A DNA stretch of 64,000 bases, taken from Dentipellis sp. KUC8613. Lineage: Eukaryota; Basidiomycota; Agaricomycetes; Russulales; Hericiaceae. The notes beneath the pieces were generated by a model. The model made no database searches and was not told where the DNA came from. It worked only from the letters and a program-made list of their open reading frames with translations. The stretch lies in contig NSJX01000022.1 of assembly GCA_002286715.1 (NCBI GenBank), positions 43,770-107,769 of the forward strand. Reading direction: 5' to 3'. Positions 26,383 to 55,671 of this stretch are shown piece after piece (the stretch's first letter is position 1; the number at the start of each line of letters is the position of its first letter). Made by a program: the position numbers and the translations under genes.

Positions 26383-28078
26383 CTAAACCCTAGACCGCCC
26401 ACTGAGATCCTGCATGCGCAAAACCGTGCTTGCAGACTCATCCGTCCTGCTACTGCCGAGCATCGACCTCTCGTGCGTGGCGCGCAGGTTCAGCATGAGG
26501 CGCGAGATGGCCACTGTTGACAAACTTTTTCGTGGGCATGAGCATCGCAAATGGGGGAGGTGGAGGGGGGAGGACGTACACGTTGACGAGGATCGTGTTC
26601 GTGCCTTTTTGCACGGGCTGTGGGTCAAGGGGGTGAGGGGCCATGTTGGCGGGCGTGAGAGTAGGTGTAGTGGAATTCGACGTACGACCGCGTACTATAC
26701 GAACATCGGATCGCATCATGTCGACTATCAGCAAGACCGAGATGCGTGTTCAAAACCCAAATACGCGTACCAGATACATCAGGATGTTGGACAGGTTCGC
26801 GAGGAAGAGCAAGCTGGCGGGCGCGAGGTCAGAATCCATGCAGACACCGTGGCACAGGGAAATATGCACACATAAAATACAGAGTTCCTGAAGGCCAGCA
26901 GTTAGTATTTCCGACAAGGCCAGGTCAAGGGATCGATTGCGAGCCACGCACCATCCCGAAGAAGCACGCGGACGAGCGACCCGGGGAACTGTCGCCCTAT
27001 GCGGAAGGCTTTGGTCGCAGTGAGCACGAACACCGCGCAGTCGAACACGAGCGGGCCGCTCCATGCCACGGCAAAGCCTATCCTGCCACAAAATCCAAAA
27101 CCCAATCAACTCGTCGTACCCGATCTGTATGGACGCACGTACGAGCGCTTCTAGAGACGCCGGTGCGCGAGGTCGTAAGTCACGGTCAGTAAAGAGGCCG
27201 GGAGCGGAGAAGCATACTGAGAGGGGGAATGCAGCGGGTTGCAGCCTGGGATGTTGAAATCGAGACCGAGCATGACGGGTGAGCCTTGTTGCCATCCTGA
27301 CAGAATTCCCCACTGCGAAATGACGGCTCTTAGGTAGACGATGAAACGTATAGCTCGTGAACATACCAGGCCCAAAACGATGCATCCGAGGATAAGGAGG
27401 ACGAGGAATGCGAGGACGGGACGGTAGTGGTTGTATATTGCGGAGACTCGTATTGCGCAGATAACTATGCAAGTGAATGCATTGTGACATTCTTTATTGG
27501 AGAACCAGATGAAGCAGGGACTTACTGATTCCTAGGAGCTGGCTCAGTGCCGCGTAGAACTGGTGGAACTTGTTTATCGTCTCGCAGCTGTTCAGATCGC
27601 CTTCTGAGCAACTGCATAACGGGACGTCTAACCAAAGTATGGGCTTACAACTGGAATGAAGGTAAGGCTGAATTGAGCTGCGCATGTGGATGGCTGAAGA
27701 GAGGAACGCACCGTACGATTGGCCGGAAATATGAACACCTCAATTATGAACGGGACATGGCCGAGCAGTGCTGCATAGCGGTTGAGGAAGAATAGTATCG
27801 ATGGCCAACTCCATCGTGCTCGCCGTGAGCGAAACCAGAACAGCCGTACTTCGGCGGGAAGGGTCAGCAGGTAGTCGTAGTAGAGTATCACTGTAAACGC
27901 GAAGACGAGGTTTGAACAAGGGTTGGCGAGATGACGAGCACGCGACGCACCAAAGTATATAGTCGAAAGGTAATACGTGATTTGTCTACCCTCGACTTTC
28001 ACGTCAATAGTGCTGCTCACGAAAGGGGAATTTGAAAACTTACAATTCGCGCGCTAAGTTGATAGATATTTCTGACAT
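26383..28078 (-). CDS. DUF6533 seven-helix membrane protein, copy a
   Basis: Fourteen exons on the minus strand: 28044-28078, 27951-27985, 27712-27890, 27649-27650, 27526-27587, 27367-27464, 27218-27312, 27143-27150, 26952-27077, 26872-26887, 26771-26813, 26686-26694, 26580-26617 and 26383-26524. The sum is 888 nt, a closed 295-residue frame. The N-terminus holds the DUF6533 signature YYDYLLTLPAEVRLFW followed by FFLNRY. Alternating hydrophobic segments after it fit a multi-pass membrane protein. Members are abundant in Agaricomycetes and have no known function. The 2-nt exon is needed to keep frame. Intron phases match the three copies at 48-56 kb, which are on the other strand. Confidence 0.85.
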
Positions 28079-28129
28079 AGCGTCAAAGAAAGGAAATGAA
28101 TCGCGTAGTAGGCAAAGAGCTTCTTTCCT

Positions 28130-29139
28130 TTAAATGTATGGCGCTGTGAAGAACTGAACGAGGGTCCTGACGGCATCTTCAACTTCATCAGTAGCAGACG
28201 TGAGAGGCATCGGCGCGGCAGCGTTCATGGCAGTTTCAGAACGAATGGAAGCTACTTGCATCAGATAGCGCAGTAGTTTGGCACTGTAGACCAGCTGATT
28301 GTGCCGTGCCGTGGTGCGGTAGGCGTTAGGCGTCTTCGAGTTCCCGCGCTGACGCAATGACAGGGACCCATCTATCTATCAATGCATCAACAGTCAGTTT
28401 GTTCTCGTCAACATCAAGGTACCCTCAAGAATCTGTCAAGACGCGATCAGCTCTCAGGATGCAAGCAGGTCTGGATAAGTCGAGCCCCTACTCACGATCG
28501 CTTGTGTTCGGCCGAGCACACTTTGTAACAACTGCCAAACCTGGTCATCGACGATGCCGGTGAGTACAAACGCTAGTCTGTTGGGCGGCATTTTCAACCA
28601 GAGATGCAGACTGTAGGGCGAAAGCAACCATTGCATAACGTGCGCTGGCTCAGACTTCACAGACCCGCGGCAATTCCGACGTTATTAATAGTCATGGTAT
28701 CAGGGGATCCAACTGGGCACAGGACGTACCACTGGCAAGCGCTTCGTAGAGCGAAACGTCAGAAATGAGTAGATTGGCACTATGAAATACCCCAGTTAGC
28801 GTGGCCTCAATGAGTCAGGTCGTCATTGCAAGCGGCGAGCTGGGGGGGAGTCGTGGTCTTAGTAGGCAATTTGCATATCTGGAGATGTACAGCTCGGTTC
28901 AAAAAAAGGGCGGCAGGTACACCGCTGTGGATTCATTCCAGCCCGCGAATGAATTGAGTCCAAGTCAGAACGACGAAGTTGAGATGAAGAGGCTGTCGAC
29001 CGTTCCCGGACGTTACTGGAGTCCCGCGGACAATGGACCTCACGTGGTCCCATATTCGGTCCAGCCGGACTAATGCATAGACCTCCCAACCCACTCGGAG
29101 TTGTTGAGCCCTCTTTGCAGCCAACAACTTGCCAAACAC
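28130..29139 (-). CDS. Hypothetical gene, structure unresolved
   Basis: The minus strand shows coding-like fragments: 28933-29139, an ANLLISDVSLYEALASG exon ending at a GTACGT donor near 28730, 28540-28660, a DVDENKLTVDALIDRWVPV segment near 28340-28400, and 28130-28290 ending in FFTAPYI. Several are flanked by plausible splice sites. I recognise no family and could not join them into one frame. It may be a multi-exon gene or a relic. Confidence 0.3.
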
Positions 29140-29634
29140 AACATCGCGATTACTTACAGCTCAGCGCTCAGAGGAGGTAAGTGGTTACTTCAATGGCGAC
29201 GAATACACTATGAACAGCCCAGGAAATTGAAGACCACGAAGCTGGCGCTTCTGCACATGTGCGATGAAGCTGATGACTATCGCCCACGATGCAGTCCAGT
29301 CAACCACCACCAACTTCACATATAAATCGGGACCCATCGTCTAATCGATTATAAGTCAAACACGAAGAACAATTCAGGTGTCGGTGTGGAGCAGAGCAAT
29401 GGAAATGTAGAAAATGTCTAGGTATGTTCTCTCACCTTGATTATCATGCTGGCACAGCCTATATCCTCCAGCCCACCACGCTTGCGCCGACTCAGCTTGT
29501 CGAAACGTTTCTCACCTACCTAGCCACGTCTACACGCCCGCGTCTGCACCGTCACCCACCACAGCATTCACTACGCGTTGTCTAGCCTCTACAGCGCCAT
29601 CTCCCCCCTCGTCGCCCTGGATCTCCACGATCCA

Positions 29635-30750
29635 TTAATCAATCCCCTCTTCTATGTCGTGCATCTCCTTCACGTGCCGCCACGCATTATCATGCCGCGT
29701 GAAGCAGGCCCTGCACATCCTGCATTGCCAGGAGTCCCCATTGTGCACACTCTTATAGTGCCGCGTCGCGTCGGGCGCGTGCACGTAACTCTCTTGGCAC
29801 CCGTCGTACCAGCAGCCCCATCTTCCGTTCTCGAGACGCACGGGCGCCGAAGGGCCTGGCTGGAGCAAACTTTCACTGGACTGCCCGACTGGGGCTGGTG
29901 GCGGTGAAATTAGTTGCGCTGGTGTCTTTTTTGTTCTCCTTGTGCGAACTGTCTTCTGCTCTTGCGTGCTCTGGTTCTGGGCAGCGGTGTCTCTGGCCCT
30001 TGCAACATTGCTTGTAGACACCTTTCGGTGGAGAGCCTGCTAGTGTCTTCATGACCCAGGTAATTTACCTGGGTTCTATATGTTATGTTGGTGAGGGTCT
30101 GCCTCATCCCCTGCCTCGACCTCGCGGTCTGGCGGACAACGGGTGCGACACCCTCGCGTCGTTGAATTTGTATCTGCTTGTACCTGGATGATCGTGAACT
30201 CGTGTTCTACAGGATTTATCGTCCATTACTCACTGGCTTGTTTCTCTCAACCTTGTATGGCTCCAGCCAGGGACCATCTGGAGGCCCGGCTGGAAATAGG
30301 GATCCGTGTTTTCATTGTTGACGTGATCATACCCTGTGTCGAGTCAGCCATACCCGGGCATGGGGTAGGCTTGGTCTTGCTGCTGCGCGACGACCGGTGT
30401 CATCGGATACTGTAGCATGGGCAATGGCGGTGGAGCCTTATAGAAGGATCCGAGATGCGAGGTGTCCAACGACGGATACATATTGTATCCGACCGCAGGA
30501 TGGCTAGTCGCAGAGGGCGCGGGCGGCGGAGACGCATCCATTATGTCGCTCTTCGACACCCGGCGTGCTCTGGGAATGGAAGTGAAAAAAACAAACCATA
30601 TGGCATCGTTCCGGGACTCTACTTTGGGCATAGTGTTTCTCTGATGTGCTGCGCTGGTGGACTGCAGAGAGCACGAGGCGCATCTGCACGAAAGTGCATG
30701 TGAGGTGAGCACTACATTCCAGCTCGTGCGCAGAGACATGTCTGACAATC
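29635..30750 (-). pseudogene. C2H2 zinc-finger gene, tandem pseudogene
   Basis: Tandem copy of the intact gene at 31050-32731. Three lesions are visible against it. A GGA-to-TGA stop lies at 30344-30346 in the proline-rich exon. A single C is missing near 29955, shifting the frame before the zinc fingers. A GAA-to-TAA stop lies at 29635-29637 after the second finger. The two fingers themselves (C-x4-C-x12-H-x4-H, then C-x2-C-x12-H-x4-H) remain intact in the 29635-30021 frame. The exons upstream of 30500 have diverged beyond clear alignment. A short finger-only product is possible. Confidence 0.75.
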
Positions 30751-31049
30751 AAACGAACTCGCGCGGTTTATCGTCGGCCGACGCTCCATCGGAGTCAAAT
30801 CTTCCGATGCAATCCGCTTCGCCCCGACCGAGTTTTCGCAAAAATTAGAAGTATATTATCGTATTGATAAGACAACACTGGGGATGATCTAGAGGTAGAA
30901 AATACCGAGGTGCGTCTCACCATCCCGACGCCAAGATCGTGTCGACATACTATTTTCTCCAGCGCAGCCCACCTTGACTAATGCGCCCAGCCCTCATTTA
31001 CCCATCTGCAGCCGCACATCCCCGCCTGGTATATCACTCACCGCAGCAT

Positions 31050-32731
31050 TCATTGCGCATTCCCCAACATCTCTGGCGCCACCTCGTCCCCATCGCCCTG
31101 GATCTCCACGATCCATTCATCAATCCCCTCGTCTATGTCGTGCATCTCCTTCACGTGCCGCCACGCATTATCATGCCGTGTGAAGCTGGTCCTGCACTTC
31201 CTGCATTGCCAGTTATCCCCAGCGTGCACACTCGAGTAGTGTCGCGTCGCGTCGTGCGCGTGCGCGTAACTTTTGCCACACCCGTCGTACCAGCAGCCCC
31301 ATCTTCCATTCTCGAGATGCACGGGCGCCGAAAGGCCCGGCTGGTGCAAAGTTTCACTGGGCTGCCCGACCGGGGCTGGTGGCGGTGAAGTTACTGGGAC
31401 TGGTGTCTTTTTTGTTCTCCTTGTGCGAACTGTCTTCCTGCTCTTGCGTGCTCTGGTTCTGGGCAGCGGTGTCTCTGGCCCTTGCAACATTGCTTGTAGA
31501 CACCTTTCGGTGGAGAGCCTGCTGGTGTTTTCATGACCCAGGTCATTCGCCGGGGTTCTATGTGTTTTGTCGGCAAGGGTCTGCCTCATCTGCTGTGCCG
31601 ACCTCGCGGTCTGGCGGACAACGGGTGCGACACCCTCGCGTCTTTGTCTTTGTGTCTGCTTGTACCTGGATGATCGTGAGCTCGTGTTCTACCGGAATCT
31701 TCGTCTATTACTCACTGGCTTGTTTCTCTCAACCTCGTATGGGTCCAGCCCGGGACCATCTGTAGGCCCGGTTGGAAATAGGGATCCATGTTTTCTTTGT
31801 TGACGTGGTCATACCCAGTGTCGAGTCCGCCATACGCGGGCATGGGGTAGGCTTGGTCTTGCTGCTGGGAGATGAGCGGTGTCGTCATCGGATACTGTGG
31901 CACGGGCAACGGCGGTGGGGCCTCGGAAAAGGATCCGAGATGCGAGGCTTCGAACGACGGATACATGTTGTATCCGCCCGCAGGAGGGACGGTCGCGGCT
32001 GGCGGGGGTGGCGGGGGCGCATACCTTGTGTCGCTGCCGGGCACCCAGTACGCCCTCGGGACAGATGGAGAAGGGGCAGCGCCATAGGACATGGTCTCGG
32101 GATTCCCCTGTGGCGGGAGGAGCATGCCCCATTGGTTCAGCGCCGGCGGGGCGTAGGGAGCATGGGGCGCGTGCGCATGCTGCTGTTGGTGGCGCACGCT
32201 CTGTGAACAGAATATTCAACAAGCGCATGGAGACGTACCTGACAGTCGTGTGGCCCTGTGCGCTGAGCGTAGACATCGGGATGCCCGTTCGTGATGCTCA
32301 ATAGCTCCTGTGGCGGTTGGAGATGAACGTCCTCGTGAGGACGAAAAGCGAGCGATAGAGGCTCGTGTAGCGAGAAATTCTGGACGTTGTGTGAGCTATC
32401 ATTCTGAGTATGACAATGACTGTAGCCGAACTCACCGAGTAGGGGTCTACGTTGGCGAACGTATACCCGCCACGCGGGTCGCCTGAAGTTTGAGGCTGGG
32501 ATTGCGACTGGTGTGGCGTACGCCGCATCAGGCACATTGACCACGGTGAGTGGATGATTGGACATTACCTGATATGGCCCCGATGTCATGCCTTGCGAGA
32601 TGATGTCGTAGAACTATGCATACGCAGGAACGTGAGCATCGTGGCTGCGACGACGGCGACGAGCAGCGCAGGTGGCTTACCTCCATGAGCATGTTGTCTT
32701 GACGATGCGGTAAAGAGTCTGGTTGGTGCAT
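31050..32731 (-). CDS. C2H2 zinc-finger protein with proline-rich N-terminus
   Basis: Six exons on the minus strand: 32681-32731, 32569-32613, 32436-32507, 32239-32379, 31716-32200 and 31050-31665, closing to about 469 residues. Residues 1-105 come from four small exons. About 105-265 is rich in Pro, Gln and Tyr, like an activation or low-complexity region. A basic segment (ARKSRKTVRTRRTKKTP) precedes the fingers and may serve nuclear import. Finger 1 is C-x4-C-x12-H-x4-H and finger 2 is C-x2-C-x12-H-x4-H. A sequence-specific nuclear DNA-binding role is inferred from the fold alone. It is the only member here with an unbroken full-length frame. Confidence 0.75.
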
Positions 32732-32819
32732 TATTGATGCTGCAGAGACGAGTTGTAGCACGACAATGGGAGAGCTGGGCAGTATGGGCGAGATGTTGAA
32801 GGGAAACAAGAAGGATGGT

Positions 32820-34714
32820 GCGTCAAGTACAGGGTGATGTAGTTTAAATACAGAAATTTGACTTTCAGACTAAGCTTTCATTTGCAGGTATCCCGGCCCG
32901 TTAGCAGAAAGGACGCTTTCAGACGAAAGGAGGCGCACGAAAGCCTGGCACATGCTTGTAATCGCTCGCATAAGAGTCTCGGGCTAAGCGCGTATCGGCC
33001 CGCAACCACTGACGTTGGACATGGGCGAGTTCTAGTCTGGAAAGATACGGGTTTGTCGGATACATTTCCACCAGTGCCGAAGCTGAATCGTCCTCTTAGC
33101 TTTGATAGGGTGAGACGACCATCATCGGCGTCGTTGACGGGCGAGTAAAGCGTCTGCGGTAGGAGAAGACCACGATCGTCGTGCCTAGGCTGCTTCCCAA
33201 GACAGCTGGACAAAAAACGTCCCCGTTCAAAAAGCGAACAAGATTACCCCAAATGTGTAAGTATCATGTACCATACCTGGCTTTTCAGGCCCTGCGAGCC
33301 CGCTCTATCCGGGAGGCGAAGGACGTACTTTCGTCGGACTGAGAGGCCCGCCAAGAACGTCCGACTGCGGACGGTTCATTGACAACAAAGCACAGTAGGC
33401 GCGAACAAGGGGCGTCCAGAACTCTAATTCCTCAAATCAACTCCCCCTTGGTACCACTCGACATTCGTTCCGGGGTCCCTGATTTGCCACAATTTCCACT
33501 TTTCGACCATCGTTTTCTGCACACGACTTTCCTCTCAGTCAAAGTGGTGCACGGATGTCATATATCGTGTCTGTACGATGCACACATTGCTTCTGCTTTT
33601 TTTCAGACTGTTGCGCGGCTGCATCGGGCCTCCATAGCATATTCATTGCGCAAACGTTTGGGACTTTGTAGCAATCCAGCATCGCAAATGTTTCATTCAT
33701 TACGTCGTATACGTCAAGAGCACTAGTCATCATCGAAGACGATCACACCGGCGCCGGGCCCGTAGTCTCTCACCTCATTCCATTCCAACGCTTCAGAAAG
33801 CTCACAACTATGATTGTGCCTCTGTGGCTTCTTCATTCCATTTTATGTTGTTGTGGGCATGAATCCTTACCGCGCGCGAGCTGGCACGACGCATAGAAGA
33901 CGCGCGCGTGCTACTATACTCTGACCTGACGCTCTGCATATCACTGCGATTGTGATCGAGTGCTCGGTTGAGCAGTGGTGGTAGTGATTGCTCACGGGGT
34001 CCCGCCACCGCAATCTCCGGGGGTTGATTTTATGTCTTAAGATTTTGGACGCCCCTTGGGCGCGAAGGTGGGCTAGAATGTGGCATTGATGCAAGCAGAG
34101 GGTTGGAATAGATAGTAGTAGGGCTGTCGTTGGAGGATTATAGGATCTGTCCAGCCGAACTTGAAGAAGTTTGTATCAAACTTGAGCGGAAGCAATTTCG
34201 TACTTGCTCGAATTCGAGGCTACAAGCGCCCGTAGTCTCGCGGACCTCTCGCACGTGGCTGCGAGCGCCTAAATCCCGGTGAATCGATGCGTCTCTCGAA
34301 CCTCATGTCGACGCTAGCATCAATCGTGCAACTACTGCTCACAAAGGCTGTAATTGCGATGGATATGATGCAGAGGAAACTCGAAAGATTCTAGTTCGTG
34401 AATGACCTGTATGTGCTACCGTGACTGACTCGAAGCAGCCCTGGAAACCACAGCATGTGTTCAAGTCTGTCAGATAATCGCACGGACATCTCCTCATCGA
34501 TAAAATCACGCGAAGGGTCAGAAGCTACAAAAGAATTACTTAGAACACAGGTGCGCCGACCAAGTATCCTCCGTCCTCATCCTGATACCCACCATACCCA
34601 TCAGCCCAAAGATACTCGTACCGATGCACAGATCTCCTTGAATGCGGCATATACACTCAAATACGCTGCATCTCTCATGCATCTCTGGGTATCTCCCGCA
34701 TCTCGGATCCTCGC
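32820..34714. other. No gene recognised
   Basis: About 1.9 kb upstream of the intact zinc-finger gene. It contains the duplicated flank near 33190-33420. Remaining open frames are short and show no family motif. Confidence 0.45.
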
Positions 34715-35389
34715 CTATGCCCCTACGATTCGTATCATGACGATCTCCTCCTCACGCGGCCTTCTGGTATGCGCTCTCCTGAAATGCCGGATCGCATCAT
34801 CATATCGTACGAACCTCCTACCGCATCGCGTGCAGAGCCACACAATCCGCGTCCACACTCTGGCCTGGTGATGGTACAAGTAGTGCCTTCGAGCATCGCA
34901 TTCGCGAGCGTGGGTGCTGTGGCATCCAACCTGCGGGCAGCCGAATCTGCCGGTATTGGTCTTGATGACTGGCGGTATGTTGTATGATGGTGAAATTCTC
35001 CGGCGAATGTGCTTTCCTCGGGCTGGCGTTGAGAGCCAGGACTGGTTCTTTTTTCCTACGTTCACCTGGCTGTTGTTCCCGGCTTTGGTCATGGGCAGTA
35101 GTCTGTTTGGCCCTCGCATCAGCATTGATAGATACCCATTGGTGAACAGGCCGGGAGTTGCATCGTAACCCAGGTCATGTGTCTGGGTTCTATCTCTTTT
35201 GATCTTCAGGGTCTGCATAGCTCGCTGTTCTGACCTCATGCCACGATTGTCGATGACTGGGACCCTCTCGCATAACAGTATTCTGGAGCATGAAGACCCC
35301 GACAAACAACGAAGGTCACTCATGGTCGAAGGTGCGTTGTCTTTGAGAGCCTGAGGCAGGAAAACGTTCAATTGTCGTTGACAGCGCAT
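34715..35389 (-). CDS. Divergent C2H2 zinc-finger family member
   Basis: A 224-residue open frame on the minus strand. Its middle (ERVPVIDN...QTHDLGYDAT...LMRGP...LLPMT) follows the order of the intact gene at 31050-32731. Two fingers follow: FGCPQVGC with downstream histidines, and LCTRCGRRFVRYDDAIRHF ending RAH (C-x2-C-x12-H-x4-H). The proline-rich exons are absent. The start is uncertain; internal ATGs at the MSDLRC or MRSEQR positions are alternatives, and further 5' exons may exist. It is too diverged from the tandem pair to be a recent copy. Confidence 0.6.
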   Translation of the reverse strand: MRCQRQLNVFLPQALKDNAPSTMSDLRCLSGSSCSRILLCERVPVIDNRGMRSEQRAMQTLKIKRDRTQTHDLGYDATPGLFTNGYLSMLMRGPNRLLPMTKAGNNSQVNVGKKNQSWLSTPARGKHIRRRISPSYNIPPVIKTNTGRFGCPQVGCHSTHARECDARRHYLYHHQARVWTRIVWLCTRCGRRFVRYDDAIRHFRRAHTRRPREEEIVMIRIVGA

Positions 35390-36099
35390 TTTGATCAGGA
35401 AGCTGGGAGACAGGGGGTTGTAGAATGGTCGAGGGGAGGTAGTAGTACCGGAGAGACGCTTGTAAGGGACAAAAGGGACGGTGCGGAAAGTGAGGGTGTT
35501 CCCAGTTTAAATACCCGCAAGTGACAGGCAACCTCGGCTTTCCGATTCTAGATAGTTGGACCCGTCAATCTGGAGAACGCTTTGAACTTCATTTGGTCGG
35601 GCGAGGCGGGGAGGCAACTGCAGGCCTTGTGTGCGCGTGAGCAAAAACCTCCGCTGATCTTCCGTTGCGATCTGGGAAAGCCCTGGTGCATATCTCCGCC
35701 ACGCATCCACTACGTAGGATGTAGGCATCCTCATGTCGCGTACGTTGGCCTCCTTCATCAGTGCTGAGTCTGCATTGTCCATTTTTGTCTCAGAATCAGA
35801 GAAGATAGCGAGATTGAGATCGGCCCACGTTATCATTAGGTGCAGACGAAAAAAGCGTTGCCAACAGGGGGCGATCCTTGTTCCTCGGATGACGGCCTCC
35901 CCGGTCAATAACTTTGACGCCCAAAGCGTATAAAAGCCCCCAAGTCAGTGCGCCGCCGTAAGTCTCATCAAACGCTTTCGGCGTAAATTGATCTATCGCT
36001 TGTTTTCTCACAAGGATCACTAGCAAGCAGGCCTGCAGTATAGAGCAGAAGATTCTGAGGTAGACGTCTGTCCGAAATATGAACGCCTCAACCCGATTA

Positions 36100-42002: not shown

Positions 42003-42346
42003 CGTAGGCTATTCCAGTTCGTCGCCAGCAACTCCAGAGGTGCTTACTCTTATAGCCCGAACCCAAAAGTCCCGGCTATTCGCCGATCTGCAGAGTCCTG
42101 CTATCCACCATCGAGGTTTGAACAGAGATAACAATCCACGGCGACTATCTTGAACGCCTTCGAATTCTGAGGGGCGCGTCAAAGATGGCACTTCGAATGG
42201 ATTGACAGATCCAGGAGGGACCCAGAGGTGTCAACTCCGCAGCGCTTGAGTCGATGATACGTGCCGTGCCGGTAGATCAGGTTACAGTCTATTTAGACGC
42301 GTATTCTGGGGATTCTGGTGAGAAGAGATCGTAGCAAGGCACGCCC

Positions 42347-42607
42347 GTGCGCGACGAACTCCTGCAGCAGCATATGCTCGCAGCGGAGATGAAGACCAAC
42401 ATCGAAGCAACCGAACAAGAACCTACGCAGCCAGTTCCACTTCCGGACACCACAGAAAGGTCCGAAATGAAGTCGCAAATGACTGCTGCCGGCTCGACCA
42501 CTGCAGCTGATCTTCTCGCCAAATTGCAGACGAGCGCCTTTCACCAGCTAGCTGTACACCACCAGCGGACTTCGGGGTCGTCCGAACCCTGTGACGCGGC
42601 ACCTTGA
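42347..42607 (+). CDS. Small hypothetical open frame
   Basis: An 86-residue frame rich in Glu, Thr and Gln (AAEMKTNIEATEQEPTQP and similar) with no recognised domain. Its composition is more protein-like than the shadows around it, but no splice context or relative supports it. It could be the last exon of an unrecognised gene. Confidence 0.2.
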   Translation: MRDELLQQHMLAAEMKTNIEATEQEPTQPVPLPDTTERSEMKSQMTAAGSTTAADLLAKLQTSAFHQLAVHHQRTSGSSEPCDAAP

Positions 42608-42609
42608 TG

Positions 42610-45057: not shown

Positions 45058-45949
45058 TCAAAGCACAATGCAGTGCGAGTGCTTCTTGCCACCCTTGGGC
45101 CGGCTGAGAAGCGCCGCGCGCGTCGCGTACTGGAAGACCTCACGCACACCCTCGCCCGACTTGGCGGAGCACTCAAGATAGTGCTTGGCGCCGATCTTCT
45201 GTGCGACAGCCATACCCTGTACACATCAAGTTTAGCGTGATGCACTGCGTATGATCACATAGGGACGCACCTCCTCAGGGGTCACAGGCCGCTGACTCGT
45301 CTTCCTGAGCTCCTCAATCACACGGGGGTCGCGCCTGAGATCCTTCTTGCAGCCAACGAGGATGATGGGGAGGCCAGCGCAGAAGTGCATGACCTCAGAA
45401 ATCCACTGTTCGCCGCGTCATGAATGATGAGTCAGCGACGGTGTCACAGGCGCTGGCCAGCGGGCAGCAGGCTACGTACCTTCTCCTGGACGTTGTCTAG
45501 AGAATCAGGCGAATCGACAGCGAAGCAGATGAGGATGACGTGCGAGTCGGGGTAGCTGAGCGGGCGGAGTCGGTCGTAGTCCTCCTGACCGGCCGTATCC
45601 CATAGCGCGAGCTCGACATGCTTGCCATCAACCTCGACGTCGGCGACGTAGTTCTCGAACACGGTCGGGACATACACCTGAAAGCAGATAATATGTGAGC
45701 CACAAATGGCTTTCGCCGTGCGCCGCAACACGACGGCGCCTATGTGTATACAAAGACGCCGCGCAGCGGCGCTGCTGAAGAGAAGCACGCACCTCAGGGA
45801 ACGTGCCCTTGGAGAAGACAATCAACAGACAGGTCTGAATGTGCGGGGAAGGTTATGAGCGGGGCCAGTAGGAGACGAGAGGGGATCGTGGGCACCTTTC
45901 CGCAAGCACCATCACCGACGATAACGAGCTTCCTGCGGATTTCAGACAT
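45058..45949 (-). CDS. rho1: Rho-family small GTPase, RHO1 type
   Basis: Five exons on the minus strand: 45896-45949, 45793-45834, 45480-45677, 45271-45405 and 45058-45216. They close to 195 residues, the usual Rho1 length. The P-loop GDGACGKT is split by intron 1. The switch I effector segment [12 protein letters not shown] and the switch [20 protein letters not shown] follow. The G4 position reads GCKKDLR instead of the common TKxD, as usual in fungal Rho1. The CAAX box is CIVL, which predicts geranylgeranylation and a membrane location. Rho1 controls cell-wall glucan synthase, protein kinase C and actin polarity. It is a conserved core gene amid expanded families. Confidence 0.95.
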
Positions 45950-47914
45950 GAAGGGGGTTTGCTGAGGAGGGTATGGGAGCGAGCAGGTGCGTGAGGAGGT
46001 AAAAGACGGTGTTGGGAGGACGGAGGAGACGACGACGACGAGGGGCTGTTCGTGCTCGGGACTTGACCGCCGTGATACGCCCCGGCGGGCTCTCAAGCGG
46101 GCTTTCAAATCCCCCAAAAGCCACGCACAGCCCGCGCCGGGCCTGTGCGTGCGACCGCCCTTCCTCATCCAGCGCCGTCCTCCGTCGATCCTGTGCTCGT
46201 CCGGCCACCAGCTGTGCTGTTCTTTCACCAGGCTGTGAGTCTCTTTTCTTTCTTCCGCCCATTTATCCGCACTCTAACACCCCAAGCAGTGCTAACAGTG
46301 TCATGTAATCCAGTATGACTTGTCGCTCACGCTACTTTTCTTCGTGACTCGTGTTTGGACACGCTAGTACCTTGCGTTTTCGGGTCTCCAAGATACGGCC
46401 TGTGACGCACAGTATTGGTGTACATCTACCCACCCTGACCCGCTGCTATTCACAGAAGGCCTCATGCAGATGCAGATGCTCCACGGACCACCGTTGCGCA
46501 GCCGTTCTGATAACGAAACGATGTTGCGTTGTCGACGGGCGAAATCATATGAGCGCTTCTTCGTGACGTCCGGCGAACGCCTGCGCCGGGTCTAGCGCTT
46601 GCTACCTGGCCGTCCTTGTATCTTCCCTGCAATATACGATGACCTTGCTTTCTGCTCCTGCTAGATCAACGGTTGACGTCTCACCTCAATCTATTCACTG
46701 AGGATGTTCGTCTCAGGACTCAATACGCCGTCGCCCGGGTGCACATGTCGGTGATTGGGTGGACAGCTTTGACATTTCCAGGACCGAGCAAGCATCTTGA
46801 CAGCACGATTGTTGGGGATCTGCATACATGATGGCTCGAATGCACGGTGGATCTGTCCCTGCATTCCCTCGGTTGACGGCGCTTTCTCTTCAAGAGGACC
46901 TTCCCTCTGCCTTTCTTATGGTCACAATCTCTCCTCTCCTTGCCCTTGCACCAGCGCTGTCCCTCACAGCGGCAGTCAGTCTTCTGCATGACTGCTCGGT
47001 AGCGAATGTCTTCATTTAGAAGACGGGTTCGCACGTCCAAGTCGCACCTGCCTCGCCTATCCACCATATAGCGGCCTTCATGGCCAGCATATCGCTCTCG
47101 GAAGCCCACTTACCCTCGCCTTCGTCCTCAACCGTGTCCTCATCATCCCCCGTCTGCCTTTCGCTGCGAGCGATGGCCCGGCGCTCAGGAAGACGTTCCC
47201 GTGACATCCGTGCTGGACGGCGAGCCTCCGTGTGCGAAAGAGGATGAGGGTGGTGGAGGGGGTTTGGTATCGTCGAAGAGGGTGAAGCCGTCGGGAAGCA
47301 CGTATGCTGGTCAGTTCAAACACTCTGTTTTCTTTGAAGAATTAAAGCATGTGGCCATAGAAGTGGAAAGATGGACAGAAAATATATTGATTGATCCCGT
47401 CGTGGACTAGGACTTTATGGAAGCTTGAGGGTTTCAAGAGACTGGCTTGCATCTGAAGGGATGTTGGCGTCTACGAGCGGCGGCCATTGCCGGCGCCCTG
47501 GCTCCGCGAACGAGCGCTTCCGCGGGCAAGATCTACCTCCGAGGACGCATCCTTCGACTGAGCGTGCCTGCGCATTCTGCTACACTCTACCATCTCACTC
47601 TATATCTCGCTCTACAATGTCGCCAACTCGCCATGCTGATCCTGTGATCACGATGAGATACGCCGGTGCCCGGAGCCGTGTGCACATGCCGGTTCGTGCC
47701 AATCAGCACTTGCACACGGTGATGCTGGATGCGCATCACGCTACGCATCCACCTCCTGCAACGCTTCTTGATCTCTAGTGCTGCATTGCCCGCGTGGATC
47801 AGTGCGTTTCTGCTGATACGGCTCCGGAGAGCGTTGCTTCTCTCCCTGGTAACGCGTTATCGTGCTCGGGGCGCCGTCTGCAAAGCATGTGCTTCAAGTT
47901 CAATGTCCTCCTGC
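45950..47914. other. No gene recognised
   Basis: Upstream flank of RHO1 followed by about 1.5 kb of DNA whose open frames overlap on both strands and show no motif. Confidence 0.4.
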
Positions 47915-47921
47915 TATAAAG
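47915..47921 (+). promoter_or_regulatory. TATA box of DUF6533 copy b
   Basis: TATAAAG lies 61 nt before the ATG at 47976. Copies c and d have TATAAAG at nearly the same spacing (55 and 53 nt), which supports both the box and the chosen starts. Confidence 0.6.
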
Positions 47922-47975
47922 CGATGGAGGGCGGTGATGGAGAGGTGCCGTCCTGTGGTGGTCCATACCGGCGCT

Positions 47976-49698
47976 ATGCCAGAACTTACGATTGGCCTGG
48001 CCCGTGAACTGTAAGTCGGCATTTCTCTTCCTCGTGACAGTACTTCTAGACGAATACAGGCAGACGCATTACTATCTTTCACTCATCTATTTCGGTGCGT
48101 TCTCAATCTCATACTCGTTAGGATATCTATTGACGTTTTGGCTTTGGCGTGCAGTCATATTGTACTACGATTACCTGCTGACCTTCGGGGCCGAAGTGCA
48201 ACTATTCTGGCTTTCCGGATCCCCGCGACGCCTCAGCTGGCCTTCCATTCTTTTCCTCATCTGCCGCTACGGCGCATTACTCGGTCACATCCCGCTCATC
48301 GTTGAAGTCTTTGTTTCCCCGGTGGACAACAATGTGCGTATCCGAGTCTTTCATACCTCTTCAACCCCAGCTGACCTAGTTTGATCTTGATACTCAGTTG
48401 TAGGCTCGTCGCCATTGTCCGAAATATCGCTCTGTGCTGATAGAAATTATGCTGGGATAGCTGCTCCGTTGTGCACATATATCACCAGCTATATGCGGGC
48501 GTCCTGCAGCTCATCATAGTCGGCAAGTCTCTCCTCAGTCCATCTCACAGGATACATCTCAATATTCTATAAATGCAGTTCTCTGCGTGATCCGCGTCTC
48601 CGCCATCTACAACCACAACCGATTCGTGCTCGGGTTCCTCATATTCCTGGTCTTAGGCTGCGCTGGTTTGACAGTTGTACGTCGGTTCTTGTCTGGATGA
48701 ATGGATTGCGATCTGATGGTCTCGATCGCGCAGTGGGTCGTCTGCTCGTCGCTGAGTGAGCATGACCACGGTCTTGTCCTCCTGAATTTGGGCTCCGGCA
48801 CCACCGGCTGCAATCCGATCTACACCAAATCTCAGTATGCACCTACCCCTCATCTTCTTCTCCGTCATCATTCTAATATGACCAACATTGCAGGGGCACT
48901 CGTATGTCTATCTACCCTTGCCTAGTTTCTCTAGAAAGGTAGACTGACGGTGAACAGAGCTCGCACTGACATGGGGCAGCTTGCTCGTGTTCGATTCCTG
49001 CGTGTTCGTCCTCACGGTCTTCAAGGCTTTCCGCGTCGGACGGCGGTATCCTGGCTCGCTGGTCCACGTGCTTCTGCGCGATGGTACGCCTCTTATAATC
49101 GACTCGGCGTCACAGCGTACTCATGCATTGTTCTTTGTTTTTCCAGGAACCTTGTACTTCGTGTGCGTAGGCTCCGGTTCCGTGCTGACTATAGTGGTGT
49201 CGATGCTGACGTTTGCCCTGAATAGCCTGCTGTTCGCTGCGAATTTTTCTAATATCATGATGTATTTGGTACGTGCTGCATATCTCCCCTATAACAAACA
49301 CTCATACTGAACGCCCACCCAGTACGCGGCCGTATGTCAGATCTTGCCTCCTCCATATCCCCGAACCCTCACTCACTCTTTCCCATCGGATCAAAGCCAC
49401 CATTACGAAGCACCAACACGGTCCTCACCACCGTGTACGCACCTCTCCCAACCATCCTTTCGAATTACTGACACAGAAGCCGCGACCACGATCTAGGTTA
49501 TCCACAGTCGCAGTCTCTCGCCTCATGCTCGGCCTGCGCGCGGCCCACGACACCTCAGACCTCGCGATGGATCCGAGCGCATCGAATCCCTCCCAAGCTG
49601 TGCGGCTGTACACTGCGAACACGAGGCGCCTGAGCGGATACGAGCCGCACCACGATCGGCGTCGGAGTCGAATGTTTGGTGGGATTGTTGTAGAGTGA
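47976..49698 (+). CDS. DUF6533 seven-helix membrane protein, copy b
   Basis: Fourteen exons: 47976-48010, 48060-48094, 48155-48333, 48398-48399, 48461-48522, 48579-48676, 48734-48834, 48894-48901, 48958-49083, 49147-49162, 49226-49268, 49323-49331, 49397-49434 and 49497-49698. The total is 954 nt, exactly 317 residues plus stop. The DUF6533 signature YYDYLLTFGAEVQLFW is followed by a conserved RYGALLGH helix, a VIRVSAIYNHNR segment and the FKAFRVGRRYPGSLVHVLLR loop. The intron after exon 5 begins GCAAGT, a GC-AG intron. The C-terminal exon is the longest of the four copies (about 67 residues). The role is unknown. Confidence 0.88.
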
Positions 49699-50718
49699 TG
49701 TATTTGGGTTGAGGTTGTCTGTGCGCATACTGTACGTAGATGAGAGTTATATGATATGGTGTGTACCGGTAGATGTTTGGATTTATACCAGTGATGTGCG
49801 CATATACAGTGACGGCGATATCTTTCCCCACGTAGGTCTTGACACTCATGCAGCGTTTCCAGCGAACGCAAAAATCAATCCAATGATCATGAGCGTTTGA
49901 AGGCGTGCATTGGATGGCAGGTCAAAGATTGAATATTGAATATTGAAGAGACGAGTGAGTCGACCCCATTCGGCGTTTGCCGAGGTTGCCATCTGCTTGG
50001 CTCGGCACCACGCCAGCAATTACAGTCTTTTCTCTCTGGCGACCGCCTCTCGAATATATACTTACCTCTGAACAGATTTTGGTCCCACGGAATCTCTAGC
50101 TCCCTTCTCGACGACATTCGGCTGTTTGTTGCACGACTCGGCTCGCTCATCGCGATGGATTTGACCCGAAATTGGGTTTTCGCGGCCTGCTGGCATATAT
50201 ATAATCAAGGTAGTAGTCGTCATTGTAGCCAGTGAGGATGCCGTCAGGGGAGATTGTGAGCGTGTTTTTGGTGAGCTCAAATTTGTCTTCTCCTTTCTCT
50301 CGAATCACCTCGGTCTTGATAGTCGCTTTATGGACGGAACATGACTCTGTCACTACCATTGACACACGAGATACTCATTCTAGGAGTCATAGCATCGCAA
50401 TCGAATGTGGCTGTCAGCCCGTATCTCCATCTTCATGCTCAAACTACCAGGGCATGACTGCTTTCCTCATGCATCATATTGATCCTGAACTCTCGCGTGG
50501 CTATGTAGTCGTAGTCTCAGGCCTTCAGGGTCCGTCTCGGACATCGACGGGTTTTGGTATGTCGCTATACCTCTTCAGGTACTCCCTTAGCCTTGAAACT
50601 CATAATCATCCAACAGAAGGTCGGAAAGAACCGTTACTGACAGATGCCGATGCGACCTGCCTGATATGTTGTACGCGTTTGGTCCTATACCACGGGGCGA
50701 CGCAGGGTCGTCCTCCAG

Positions 50719-50725
50719 TATAAAG
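50719..50725 (+). promoter_or_regulatory. TATA box of DUF6533 copy c
   Basis: TATAAAG lies 55 nt before the ATG at 50774, at the spacing shared with copies b and d. Confidence 0.6.
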
Positions 50726-50773
50726 CAGATATACAATCCTCAAATATTCTCAACGCACTGGCTGCACCTTCTC

Positions 50774-52353
50774 ATGGAGCACCTAACAAGCGGGCAGGCC
50801 CGCGAATTGTAAGTATGCGATTTCCAAACTCTGTGCATGGGATCATCGTTAACAAAAGACAGACGTACAAGTCATTACCTCTCACTCATCTACTTCAGTG
50901 CGTGATTTATAACCTGCCACACTAACGTCCTGAGCTCACCTCAAATTTCGGCTATCAGCCGTACTATTCTACGATTACTTGCTGACATTCTCAGCAGAAG
51001 TACATTTTTTCTGGTCAAGACGACGAATGAGCTGGCCCTCAGTCCTCTTCTTCCTCAACCGCTATGGCGCGCTACTCGGACATATCCCGTACATGATTGG
51101 AGAATTCATGCATCCTTCGAATGAAGAGGTGCGTGGCCTATCCGTCGCCTGTTTACCCGTCATTAATGTATTCATTCGCCGGGTGGCGCACAGTTGTAAG
51201 TTTTCAATCCATGGAAGCTCTGCGTAGTTGGTATTGAGTCGATTCAATAAACAGCTGCTCCGAAATCCATCGATTTTACCAGATATATGTCGGTCTCCTA
51301 CAGCTCGTCATCTTCGGTAGGATTCACGTCTATGCACATACACAGTTTCGATGATATTCATCGCTGTCATCAATATCAAGGTTTATATGTCATCCGTGTC
51401 TCTGCAATCTACAACAATAGCAAGCTTGTCGTCGGTTACCTCGTCGTTGTTATTGTCGGAAGCATCGCTCTGTGTTGTGTATGCCTTCGAGTTATTCTCT
51501 ATCCCGCTCGCTGACGCAGCTACCGATGGTTCCACAGTGGTTCATTGCTTCGGATGCACGCCAGGGTGCGCATCTACTGCGTGGACCTGGCGTGACAGGT
51601 TGTCCTCAGGTGTACACCCACTCTCAGTACGGTTTGACCTCTTTCATGGTTAATAAAGCTCATCTTCTCGTCCCAGGGGTACTCGTACGTTCATCATAAC
51701 TAGCATATACCCGAGCAAGTTCACCCCCTTATGGCATAGGGCCCGCGCTGCCGTGGACTGGTGTACTATTATTCGATAGCTCGATATTCGTCCTCACGAC
51801 AGCCAAAGCCTTTCGCATCGGGCGGCAATACCCTCGGTCAATCATCAGCGTGCTTCTCCGCGACGGTACTCACTTGCTTCTCCCTATAACTTAGCGGAAG
51901 CGCTGACAGCCTCGATCGTTTTAGGCACCCTATGTTTCATGTAGTTCAATTTCCTTTTGTCACTTCCTTGATTAACCGTGCGTCGTTCAGCGTTCTATTT
52001 CTAGTAAACCTCGCCAACATTTTGACTTGCTTGGTACGTGGCACCTCGTTTTGCTCAGGACATCGTTCGCTTACATTGGTGCAATGTCCTAGTTTGCGGC
52101 TGTATGTCATTTTCCATCTAGATTGACGTCACCACTAATGTTATTCCTAGCCCCTGCTTAAAAGTACGAACACACTCATTACAACTGTGTAGGTCTGGCA
52201 TCTGTCGCCTTCCCATTAAATGGCTATTCTAAGTCGCCGCATTTGACACCATACAGGATGTCGAACGTCGCTATGTCACGTATGATGCTCGATCTTCGCG
52301 CGGCTGATGAAGAGCTGAAGCTCGGAGACACAGGAGAAATTGACTACGTGTGA
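50774..52353 (+). CDS. DUF6533 seven-helix membrane protein, copy c
   Basis: Fourteen exons: 50774-50808, 50863-50897, 50959-51128, 51194-51195, 51255-51316, 51381-51478, 51538-51626, 51677-51684, 51740-51865, 51925-51940, 51991-52033, 52093-52101, 52151-52188 and 52257-52353. The total is 828 nt, 275 residues plus stop. The DUF6533 signature FYDYLLTFSAEVHFFW and the FNRY-like NRYGALLGHIP helix are clear. The KAFRIGRQYPRS loop and ANILTCL helix match the other copies. Compared with copy b the final exon is cut short; sequence resembling b's tail lies about 300 nt downstream (near 52650). No function is known for the family. Confidence 0.87.
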
Positions 52354-53955
52354 TGTGTGACATCGGTACGTACTGTCGCCATAGTCTCTCTTTGGGTGGT
52401 AAACCCTCACGCTGAAGTGTCGTCATTTCTCACTACCATCCTAGGACGTGGCTGCACATCCGACTTTCTCAATTCTATGACACGTGATCCTTTTCCTTTA
52501 CTTTGTAGCCGTCACTACGACGCATGATCGTAGCGCGTATTCACGGCCGTGCGCATGCACCGTAGCTTGTTGCATTCGACCCGCTCTGAGACTAAGGCAA
52601 GCCATCTACAACCACTGTCCTGGCTTCATGCTCGGCCTTAGCGAGCGAGGAACACGTTGAACTTTGGAATGGATCCCTACGAGACAAGTCACGGTGCTTC
52701 CCAAGCTGTGCCTCCCCGCGAATGTGGGCAGCCACGCAGGTGAGCCGAATCATGACAATGGTGACAGGCATCTAAATCGGATATTTGATTATATCCTTAT
52801 GGAGTGTTTGGGCCGTAGTTGAGCTGCCATCGTGAATACATGTGAGTGTTGTGGGTGTGTTATACCCGTAATGCTGTATGTCTCACCTTTGCACTTCCGA
52901 AAATCAGTTGCCAGACACGAAACTCGCCCGCGCGAACGGGCTTCTGAGATAGAGCAACCAATTCACCGGCTCAGACTCGACAATACGCAGGCGCTCATGT
53001 GCGCACAAGAGGGTGGAATCCGATTCAGATGTGTGCCTCATACCATTCTCGTCGACTAATGGTGCGGACAAATTTACAAATTTGCCGCAGGCCTCGCATT
53101 CTCATCTGAAGTGCTCTGTTCTATCGAATTTTATGTTCGCGAAAGGCAGACTTGCTTCGATCTATTAGCCGCCATGGTCGAATGACTGGAATCCGTGCCG
53201 GTCTCCGTACACTATGTCAACCCCGAACTGCGTATAAAACTGCATAGGATCTGCTCGTCATGATGCAGACAAACTTAGGGCCCTTTCTCTCGCGACTCAC
53301 ATTCATTCGAACAGGCATATCAGTGCCACGCAAGCTATAAGTCCTATCCCGCCTAAGTCAGTTTCTTTATTGCAGAACGACTATACTATCTGTATGTAGG
53401 TCTGATTGGCAAGGTCTTAATCTATGGTCTTCCGCAAGCATGGCGGGCTTGTCCTAGCCAGCGAGCAAGCTGTCAAGCTCGAACTTGCAGTGAGTCTGTC
53501 GAAATGTCTTTTGCTTTACTTTTCTTTCTAACTGAATCATCTGCCGCACATGGATCAGCTGGTTCGACTCTGATGCGGTCAGTTACTGCTCTGTGAGGGT
53601 TTCATCCTGGGAGTTGTACATCCCGTAATCAAATTTGCACGTCCCCGTTTATACGTTCAGTTTCTTCAGGTATGCCTGCTCTTCGAATGTATCATCGTGG
53701 TTGCAAGCCTTCGCATGATGACGTGTTTGGAGTATCAGATCAACAATCATGCTCGTGGATCGCGACGGGCATCCGCTAGTTTTGGTATGTCTCTTGAGCT
53801 TTTGTCTGACTCTGCCGACTTTGAAGCTCTTAGCTATGCAACAGAAAGCCGAAAAGAACCTGTCGCTGACAGATAGGTCGATGCAGATCGTGCGATCCAC
53901 ACTGTCCTTGTGAAGTCCTGTGCGATAAGTCGATCGTGCGTTTTCCACGTATCAG
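52354..53955. other. Spacer of the tandem unit
   Basis: No independent gene. It contains the displaced tail-like segment near 52650-52760 and the upstream flank of copy d. Other open frames are short. Confidence 0.5.
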
Positions 53956-53962
53956 TATAAAG
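53956..53962 (+). promoter_or_regulatory. TATA box of DUF6533 copy d
   Basis: TATAAAG lies 53 nt before the ATG at 54009, matching the position in copies b and c. Confidence 0.6.
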
Positions 53963-54008
53963 GAGATATGCAATCGTCGAAGACTTCACGAACTGGTTTC
54001 ACCTTCTC

Positions 54009-55671
54009 ATGTCAGACCTCACCAGCGGGCAGGCCCGTGCGCTGTGAGTAGGCAATTACAGCCCTCGCTCTATGAAAGCATCGTTGACGGCAAAGCAGGC
54101 GGACAAGCTGTTACCTCTCCCTCATTTACTTCAGTGAGTCATATACTCGGTGTCCTCGTAATCCGACCTGATCTTCAGCTTCGACCCTCAGCCATACTAT
54201 ACTACGATCACCTCCTGACATTCTCGGCAGAAGTACGCCTTTTCTGGTCACGAAGACGACTGAGTTGGCCATCCGCTCTTTTCTTCATCAATCGCTACGG
54301 TGCTCTCCTCGGACATGTTCTGTGCATAATCGGAGAGTTCATGTATTCTGACAACGACGAGGTGCGTGATCTGTCTTCGCAATATCGCTTGCCACTGATG
54401 TATCCATTCACGCGGAGATGCTCAGTTGTAAGCTGTCCAGAAAATGAAAGCTCCATGCAACTGATACCAATTCGGTAAAATAGCTGCTTTACATTGCACG
54501 AATTTTATCAGTTATACGTCGGTTTCCTTCAGCTTGTCATATTTGGTAAGTTTCTTCTCATCTCTCTACACTTGCGCGAGTTAAACGTGCTATGTATTGT
54601 CACTTACACCAAGGGCTATGCATCATGCGTGTCTCTGCAATCTATAATCACAACCGGCTTGTCATCGGTTACCTTCTCGTTGTTGTCCTTGCAAGCATCG
54701 CTCTATATTGTGTATGCCTTCAAACTGTCTTTTATCTCATCTACCGACTCAGTTGCCGATGTTCCCAGTGGTTTTATGCTTCGGGACTACATCAGGGTGC
54801 ACAGCTCCTGCGCGGCCGTGACGTAGTTGGCTGTCACTTGATGTTCCCCCAATCTCAGTACGAGTTTACTTTCTTCGTCTATTGTTAATCGTGCTTATCC
54901 CTTCATCCCAGGGGTGCTCGTACGTTTTTTTTTCGTACCTGGAAAGCATCTGGACTAGTTTGACCCTTCATGTTACAGGGCTTGCAGTTCCATGGTTTGG
55001 CGTGCTGTTCTTCGATTGCTCAATCTTCGTCCTTACGACGGCCAAGGCCTTTCGCATCGGACGGCAATACCCTCTGTCAGTCGTTCGCGCGCTTCTCCGT
55101 GACGGTGATCCCTTCTATTATTCTTTACAACAGAGCGAGAATGCTGACGCCCCTCGAATCGTAAGGCACGCTATGCTTCATGTGCGTCAAAAGTCATTCA
55201 GTAACTTCTTCGATTGATCATGCATCGTATAGCGTTCTATTTCTAGCAAACTTCGCCAATATCTTGATGTGCTTGGTACGTTCCACGTCCGACTGTTCGA
55301 AAATTTTGCTTATATAGGCTGGTACAATGCCCTAGCTTGCGCCTGTACGCAATTTCTCTCCTCGGTCGATGCCATGCTTATGTTATTCCAAGCCTATACT
55401 GAAAAGCATGAACACGCTCCTTACAACTGTGTAGGCTTCATGTTCCTTCAATTGTCTGTGTATTGACCGCTCTAACTCCCCGGATTGGACACCATGCAGG
55501 ATGTCGACCATTGCCATGTCACGAATGATGCTTGACCTCCGTGCGGCCGATGCAAGGCTGAAGCTACGAAATACTCGAGAATCCAACTTCATACAGCTTG
55601 AGTCGGTACGTAATGGCAGCATCGTCTTTCTCAAGGCAGTAAGCCCTCACGCTGGAGTATCCCCGTTTTGA
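54009..55671 (+). CDS. DUF6533 seven-helix membrane protein, copy d
   Basis: Fourteen exons: 54009-54043, 54099-54133, 54192-54361, 54426-54427, 54484-54545, 54614-54711, 54769-54857, 54912-54919, 54979-55104, 55166-55181, 55233-55275, 55336-55344, 55393-55430 and 55500-55671. The total is 903 nt, 300 residues plus stop. The DUF6533 signature reads YYDHLLTFSAEVRLFW. The NRYGALLGH, SAIYNHNRLVIGY and KAFRIGRQYPLS segments follow in family order. A GTACGTA donor-like site lies in the last exon at a place also seen after copy c, so an extra 3' intron is possible and the last 19 residues are uncertain. It is the tandem sister of copy c. Confidence 0.86.

What the first reader, a model, noticed from the sequence alone, without database searches (positions are those of the whole stretch)
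27649..54427. A 2-nt exon (TT) conserved in four DUF6533 paralogues
Sites: 27649-27650 (minus strand), 48398-48399, 51194-51195 and 54426-54427. In each, exon 3 ends at a GTGCGT donor, then comes a C-AG, then TT, then a GTA(A/G)G donor, then a second AG before CTGC. Without the TT the next exon is out of frame in all four genes. With it each reads Phe-Cys and joins the conserved ...FYQLYVG helix, and the complete 14-exon frames close at 295, 317, 275 and 300 residues. The flanking introns are each normal in length (for copy c, 65 and 59 nt). Conservation of the AG-TT-GT core while the flanking introns have diverged argues against chance. Exons this small are near the lower limit known for spliceosomal splicing, so how it is recognised is an open question.
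Basis: partly seen in the sequence, partly recalled or inferred. Interest (0 to 1): 0.92.

Follow-up and report, generated by a model that had tools for sequence, protein, structure and literature searches.

The report
Two-letter exon in fungal receptor-like genes
Four related membrane-protein genes in a tooth fungus each carry the letters TT between two ordinary introns, very likely a two-letter exon that is spliced into the messenger RNA; the same exon is predicted in seven to nine more family members of this genome, and the public protein models of the four genes leave it out.

Summary
With TT, the four 14-exon frames close at 295, 317, 275 and 300 aa; a direct join of exons 3 and 5 loses the frame. 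I reject it because (i) paralogue L037 has the same AG-TT-GTAAG core and no one-intron join within the limits tried, and the GT|GC rival is impossible in 9 of 15 related loci; (ii) a strict YAG-N2-GTRNG site is in 13 of 15 gaps, against 0.5% per locus in shuffles; (iii) the core is 96% identical over five genes, its introns 33-35%; (iv) the four rival donors score below 44 of 44 other donors; (v) Val precedes the conserved Cys in 1 of 45 transcript-like proteins of other fungi, 33 of 152 public models. Exon length (2, or 5 = 2+3) is kept while letters change (TT, CT, perhaps AC, AG). It probably works by one-at-a-time intron definition. The predicted fold is GPCR-like. No RNA from this fungus was seen.

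The parts
48398..48399 (+). 2-nt exon TT (exon 4) of gene a
   Evidence: CAG|TT|GTAGGC; gene closes at 317 aa
48334..48397 (+). intron 3 of gene a, 64 nt, GTGCGT...CAG
48400..48460 (+). intron 4 of gene a, 61 nt, GTAGGC...TAG
47976..49698 (+). gene a, DUF6533 protein, 14 exons, 317 aa
   Evidence: Pfam hit
51194..51195 (+). 2-nt exon TT (exon 4) of gene b
   Evidence: CAG|TT|GTAAGT; gene closes at 275 aa
51129..51193 (+). intron 3 of gene b, 65 nt
51196..51254 (+). intron 4 of gene b, 59 nt
50774..52353 (+). gene b, DUF6533 protein, 14 exons, 275 aa
   Evidence: Pfam hit
54426..54427 (+). 2-nt exon TT (exon 4) of gene c
   Evidence: CAG|TT|GTAAGC; gene closes at 300 aa
54362..54425 (+). intron 3 of gene c, 64 nt
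54428..54483 (+). intron 4 of gene c, 56 nt
54009..55671 (+). gene c, DUF6533 protein, 14 exons, 300 aa
   Evidence: Pfam hit
27649..27650 (-). 2-nt exon TT (exon 4) of gene d
   Evidence: CAG|TT|GTAAGC; gene closes at 295 aa
27651..27711 (-). intron 3 of gene d, 61 nt
27588..27648 (-). intron 4 of gene d, 61 nt
26383..28078 (-). gene d, DUF6533 protein, 14 exons, 295 aa; public protein P0001 is identical but for Val at residue 84
   Evidence: Pfam hit

Best explanation
In each of the four genes the letters TT, set between a CAG acceptor and a GTA(A/G)G donor, are very likely a separate two-nucleotide exon, predicted to give the first two letters of the Phe codon just before the cysteine that is predicted to open transmembrane helix 3. 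The exon lies inside one codon: a phase-0 intron before it, a phase-2 intron after it. Mechanism (inferred): the two introns (56-65 nt) are each recognised whole, as intron-defined units. The acceptor of the first and the donor of the second are too close for both to be occupied at once, so the introns would be removed one after the other, probably the upstream one first as it is transcribed first; that joins exon 3 to TT and leaves exon3-TT|GTAAG as the donor for the second step, as in recursive splicing but with two letters kept. What selection holds is the length (2, or 5 = 2+3), because skipping would shift the frame; the letters are freer (TT, CT, perhaps AC, AG). Shown: the sequence core, frames, paralogue pattern, statistics. 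Inferred: splicing in vivo, order of removal, constitutive use.
For: Exons 3 and 5 of a-d are in frame with TT between them and out of frame without. L037, a fifth gene on the same contig outside the window, closes at 287 aa over 14 exons with TT and has 0 one-intron GT/GC-AG joins within the limits (donors from 27 nt before the end of exon 3, acceptors up to 9 nt past the start of the Cys codon, introns of 40 nt or more). L009, from a separate clade (support 87/81), closes at 319 aa over 12 exons with TT. By my reading 13 of 47 DUF6533 hits carry a 2-nt exon at this place: TT in 10, CT in 1, AC and AG in 1 each; 2 carry 5 nt. Strict site at length 2 in 13 of 15 gaps, at lengths 0, 1, 3 and 4 in none; over all 47 loci 16 at length 2, mean 3.7 at others. 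Core identity over 5 genes 0.96, introns 0.33 and 0.35, exon 5 0.62. A single GT|GC intron would be 120-125 nt in a-d; the 44 others are 48-76. In 18 of 19 paralogues scanned that lack the flanking introns, one exon runs through the codon and the Cys. Transcript-like P0137 (433 aa, contig 1946 nt) matches a public Pterulicium gracile model at 424 of 433 aligned residues, reads DA-F-C at the junction, and all nine differences lie at this junction and the next. Val before Cys: 1 of 45 transcript-like, 33 of 152 public models.
Against: No RNA of this fungus was available. Public models of b, c and d have Val at this one residue, as the GT|GC donor would give, and whether RNA reads supported them is unknown; the public model of a replaces the 22 residues from Phe on by 5. 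The 'transcript-like' class is my inference from contig length and uninterrupted frame (42 of 45 on contigs under 2 kb), and the genomes of those fungi were not read, so a 2-nt exon in them is inferred. Transcript-like sequences do not always have Phe: in the first search L4 I4 F3 T2 and one each of M E Q W R G S (20 of 21, one without Cys); Val does occur once in the second. Not every splice site in the set is good: the intron-3 donors of L013 (0.9) and L041 (-1.4, a GC donor) score below the lowest of the 44 reference donors (2.2), and the intron-4 donors of L041 and L042 are near it (3.0, 3.1). The GT|GC rival is also in frame in L042 and L031. In gene d the skipped frame stays open to codon 273. 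L028 and L033 do not fit a 2-nt exon.
Confidence: 0.9

Rival explanations
1. No microexon: exon 3 ends two letters later (...GT) and one GC-AG intron of 120-125 nt runs to CTGC, giving Val-Cys.
For: In frame in all four window genes and in L042 and L031 (6 of 15 loci). Public models of b, c and d differ from mine only by Val there (b also by its start, c also cut short).
Against: Impossible in 9 of 15 loci that share the layout; L037 has no one-intron join within the limits tried. Donor scores -2.8 to -4.1 against a minimum of 2.2 in 44 other donors, one of them a GC donor (the score was made from those same 44). Intron longer than any of 44 others. Leaves the 96% conserved CAG-TT-GTAAG core unexplained. 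Val is rare in transcript-like sequences, 1 of 45, against 33 of 152 public models.
Confidence: 0.06
2. Another one-intron join, with a different acceptor or donor, makes the protein; TT is intronic.
For: In-frame one-intron joins exist in 14 of 15 loci (2 to 36 each).
Against: They differ from gene to gene and mostly add or remove residues, while 12 of the 18 unsplit exons found at this place are exactly 60 nt long; none exists for L037 within the limits tried.
Confidence: 0.02
3. Recursive splicing at a zero-nucleotide ratchet point: one long intron taken out in two steps, nothing retained.
For: Two short introns back to back with an acceptor and donor side by side resemble a ratchet point.
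Against: No strict zero-length site in any of 15 gaps, against 13 of 15 at length 2; without the two letters the frame is lost.
Confidence: 0.01
4. The genes are decayed and the frame does not matter.
For: One close relative, L054, has AA in place of the AG next to TT.
Against: Four window genes, L037 and L009 are open over 12-14 exons.
Confidence: 0.01

Closest known systems
1-nt exon of fungal CYP621A (Fusarium), PMC12940212 (passages read)
   Same: Ultra-small exon in a fungus, found because one over-long intron (139 nt) hides it, inside a conserved motif, missed by annotation; confirmed there by RNA reads and an intronless homologue.
   Different: 1 nt, one orthologue group, Ascomycota. 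Here 2 nt, many paralogues in one genome, letters and length variants, Basidiomycota, no RNA yet from the same fungus.
1-nt exon of Arabidopsis APC11, PMC4674806 (abstract and passages read), and 1-nt exons of APC11 and VPS55 in plants, PMC8831610 (passages read)
   Same: Exon of near-zero length between two introns; the Arabidopsis authors favour intron definition with one-after-another removal; widely misannotated; homologues where the introns are absent.
   Different: Plants, 1 nt, single orthologue groups; not a multi-copy receptor-like family.
Microexons of Phanerochaete P450 genes, PMC1184071 (abstract and passages read)
   Same: Agaricomycete genes with many tiny exons and frequent 45-55 bp introns.
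   Different: Shortest exon there 6 bp.
Recursive splicing ratchet points (recalled; abstract starts seen in the listing)
   Same: Adjacent acceptor and donor used one after the other.
   Different: Ratchet points keep no letters; here two are kept and are needed for the frame.
SNB1, a DUF6533 protein of Coprinopsis, PMC10949477 (one passage and section 8 read)
   Same: Same domain, seven predicted transmembrane helices.
   Different: The term 'intron' does not occur in the main text of that paper.

Membership tests
Ultra-short (1-2 nt) spliceosomal exon | Flanked by canonical acceptor and donor | tested here: met
   CAG|TT|GTA(A/G)G in 4 of 4 window genes
Ultra-short (1-2 nt) spliceosomal exon | Needed to keep the reading frame | tested here: met
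   Skipping shifts the frame in 4 of 4, though a GT|GC donor could also mend it there; L037 has no other in-frame join within the limits tried
Ultra-short (1-2 nt) spliceosomal exon | Flanking introns of normal length | tested here: met
   56-65 nt against 48-76 nt for 44 others
Ultra-short (1-2 nt) spliceosomal exon | Conserved across homologues beyond chance | tested here: met
Ultra-short (1-2 nt) spliceosomal exon | Present in mRNA of the same gene | not testable with these tools
   No RNA of this fungus; transcript-like proteins of other fungi agree
GC-AG intron (GT|GC rival) | Donor close to the AG|GCAAGT consensus (consensus recalled) | tested here: not met
   GT|GCGTNN, score -2.8 to -4.1, below 44 of 44 other donors
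Zero-nucleotide recursive splice site | AG|GT with nothing retained | tested here: not met
   0 of 15 gaps have a strict length-0 site
DUF6533 (PF20151) | Score over the Pfam cut-off | tested here: met
   C86 hits 71532, 91920, 94727 and 97960, all over cut-off
GPCR-like seven-helix fold | Seven transmembrane helices in the GPCR arrangement | tested here: met
GPCR-like seven-helix fold | Cys at start of helix 3 paired with Cys in the hairpin after helix 4 (pairing recalled from class A GPCRs) | tested here: inconclusive
   Cys in its column in 44 of 45 transcript-like proteins; C161 at least 90% in 64 chosen rows; positions fit; the bond was not measured
G-protein-coupled receptor | Couples to a G protein | not testable with these tools
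   fold does not show function

The most novel reading that the evidence does not exclude
A two-letter exon has been kept since before the deep split of a mushroom-wide family of GPCR-like receptors, with its length under selection and its letters free (TT, CT, AC, AG; 5 letters in one branch), so every such gene is spliced by obligatory one-at-a-time, near-recursive splicing, and many DUF6533 models in public databases are wrong at the residue before the helix-3 cysteine; inclusion could even serve as a frameshift switch for the receptor.
Probability: 0.5. Interest if true: 0.82.

Novelty: new member of a known kind. Interest (0 to 1): 0.7.

Why it matters
Exons of one or two nucleotides test the limit of exon recognition, and the 1-nt cases that I saw in print are single orthologue groups (passages). 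Here one genome offers 11 clear natural variants of the same junction, with different donors and introns, plus 5-nt forms and relatives without the introns: a ready set for finding out what the spliceosome needs. It also points to a repeated error in public models of this family: Val inserted, or the cysteine lost, at one junction. The listings of three searches for such exons (the first two capped at 20 of 61 and 30 of 50 papers) and of one on Agaricomycetes show no 2-nt exon in a basidiomycete; DUF6533 occurs in 2 papers of the library, one seen as a passage and one section, the other only in the listing.

Tried and rejected
A first hope, that public protein P0001 (295 aa, 100% in the table) confirmed the TT exon, was wrong: it differs at residue 84, Val for Phe. 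I then treated the GT|GC donor as the main rival. L028 and L033 were tried as 2-nt cases; they fit only longer exons (17 and 23 nt, both 2 mod 3) with introns of 38 and 37 nt, left open. The change of donor score after removal of intron 3 (better in 8 of 15, equal in 7) was not used as evidence on order, because the G of AG is a poor letter at that place anyway. The script found the continuous exon in 18 of 19 loci; L032 was missed by its pattern. The tree rests on 51 columns and has only 6 of 33 inner branches starred. The 64 rows were picked from the 120 listed and leave out most rows without the Cys, so I do not use its 'invariant' C85. Transcript-like V counts are significant in each search apart (p 0.02 and 6e-4), but the sequences are related. 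One of three protein searches and one of two structure jobs were not used.
Full report
What is there. The window lies in a 34-Mb genome. The public protein closest to gene d is identical over 294 of 295 residues and comes from Dentipellis sp. KUC8613, Russulales; the public contig is 417,588 nt and ours 410,832, so the assembly may differ. I read the four sites and built the four genes exon by exon. Labels here: a = 47976-49698, b = 50774-52353, c = 54009-55671, d = 28078-26383 (minus). The TT exon is exon 4 in each; exon 3 ends in phase 0 and exon 5 starts in phase 2, so TT and the C of exon 5 make one Phe codon before Cys.

The strongest objection. The public models do not contain TT. For b, c and d they differ from mine by Val in place of Phe (b also starts 36 residues earlier, c ends at residue 244), which is what exon 3 ending in GT and an intron starting GC would give; for a, 22 residues from the Phe on are replaced by 5. 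Whether it had RNA support is not known. In the messenger the two readings differ by one base.

Paralogues decide. A Pfam search of the genome gave 47 DUF6533 hits. I fetched all 47 and read the DNA downstream. Account of the 47: 13 have a 2-nt exon at this place (TT in the four window genes, L037, L009, L013, L021, L031, L036; CT in L039; AG in L041 and AC in L042, both tentative), 2 have 5 nt (L040, L043), 1 is a near copy of L036 with AA for AG (L054), 2 are unresolved (L028, L033), 19 were read as lacking the flanking introns, 9 (L044, L046-L053) are built otherwise and 1 (L055) is too diverged. For the 15 with 2 or 5 nt I listed every in-frame one-intron join with GT or GC donors, from 27 nt before the end of exon 3 to 9 nt past the start of the Cys codon and with introns of 40 nt or more. 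The GT|GC rival exists in 6 (a, b, c, d, L042, L031) and not in 9. L037 has no such join of any kind, yet closes at 287 aa over 14 exons with TT. L009 closes at 319 aa over 12 exons and lies in a separate clade (87/81, few columns).

Chance. In the 15 gaps a strict site (YAG, k letters, GTRNG, 45 nt of intron on each side) is found in 13 at k = 2, in none at k = 0, 1, 3 or 4, and in 1 each at k = 5 and 20; shuffles give 0.49% per locus, or 9.6% for a bare AG-NN-GT. As those loci were chosen by eye, I repeated the count on all 47 without choice: k = 2 in 16 loci, other lengths 3.7 on average, SD 3.1, with 15 at k = 33 as the next; three of the 16 (L046, L050, L053) are not the site described here. 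Between five close genes the ten-letter core is 96% identical, introns 3 and 4 are 33% and 35%, and exon 5 is 62%. The rival donors score far below 44 ordinary donors of the same genes; the microexon's own donors in a-d (6.2-8.5) lie within their range (minimum 2.2, mean 8.2). Outside the window two intron-3 donors, of L013 and L041, are weaker than that minimum. The rival intron would be 120-125 nt in a-d; 44 others are 48-76 nt.

Other fungi. The first protein search listed 120 of 144 relatives, the second 77. I divided these 197 by source tag: 45 with only jgi or lgn tags, 42 of them on contigs under 2 kb, where a gene with a dozen introns can give an unbroken frame only as spliced RNA (inferred); and 152 from NCBI, UniRef or nr. 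Residue before the conserved Cys: Val in 0 of 21 and 1 of 24 transcript-like, in 16 of 99 and 17 of 53 public models; the Cys is missing from its column in 1 of 45 against 39 of 152. Fisher tests give p 7e-5 for Val (1 of 44 against 33 of 113, rows without Cys left out) and 2e-4 for the lost Cys, on sequences that are not independent. In the second family branch the transcript-like residue is Phe in 13 of 24 and Tyr in 4; public models there have Phe in 11 of 53. Close pairs are telling. P0137 against the Pterulicium gracile model: 424 of 433 aligned residues identical, the nine differences and two inserts all at this junction and the next. P0026 (contig 2625 nt, long enough that splicing is not proved by length) has one residue, Leu, between NLP and Cys; of eight public Lactarius models of that branch printed, three have Val, four have inserts or altered residues and one skips the region.

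How it probably works. All 52 introns of these four genes are short (48-76 nt), so recognition across introns is the natural model (inference). With two letters between them, the acceptor of intron 3 and the donor of intron 4 cannot be held by two complexes at once, so removal must be stepwise (inference). I favour intron 3 first because it is made first; the one precedent I saw quoted, a 9-nt potato exon, removes the second intron first (PMC4674806), so the order is open. The 5-nt forms and the unsplit relatives suggest that the place is fixed by frame, not by its letters.

Novelty. Exons of 1 nt are known in plants and in one fungal P450 (PMC4674806, PMC8831610, PMC12940212; passages read). 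The last of these also cites 2-5 bp exons in Arabidopsis, fly and human from older work that I did not read. So the kind is known; a 2-nt exon kept across a multi-copy basidiomycete family did not turn up in the listings of my searches.

Noticed in passing
48894-48901, 49323-49331, 49147-49162 and the matching exons of b, c, d: Each gene has three more very small exons of 8, 9 and 16 nt (exons 8, 12, 10), of the same lengths in all four and in L037.
   Followed up: partly
48523: Exon 5 of gene a ends at a GC donor (GCAAGT), close to the usual GC-AG pattern (recalled), unlike the rival at exon 3.
   Followed up: no
L040, L043: The exon is 5 nt (CTTCT, TACCA) at this place; GT|GC rival not possible there.
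   Followed up: partly
L028, L033: Intron 3 acceptor followed by TACG; the joins that I found to keep the frame need longer exons (17, 23 nt) with 37-38 nt introns.
   Followed up: partly
L054: Near copy of L036 with a shortened domain and AA in place of the AG before TT; looks like a decaying duplicate.
   Followed up: no
[quoted passage not shown]
   Followed up: no
26383-28078: Without TT gene d keeps an open wrong frame to codon 273, much longer than in a, b and c.
   Followed up: no
public proteins P0004, P0007, P0121: Public models of gene a, L037 and L009 skip or damage the helix-3 region, beyond the Val of b, c and d.
   Followed up: partly
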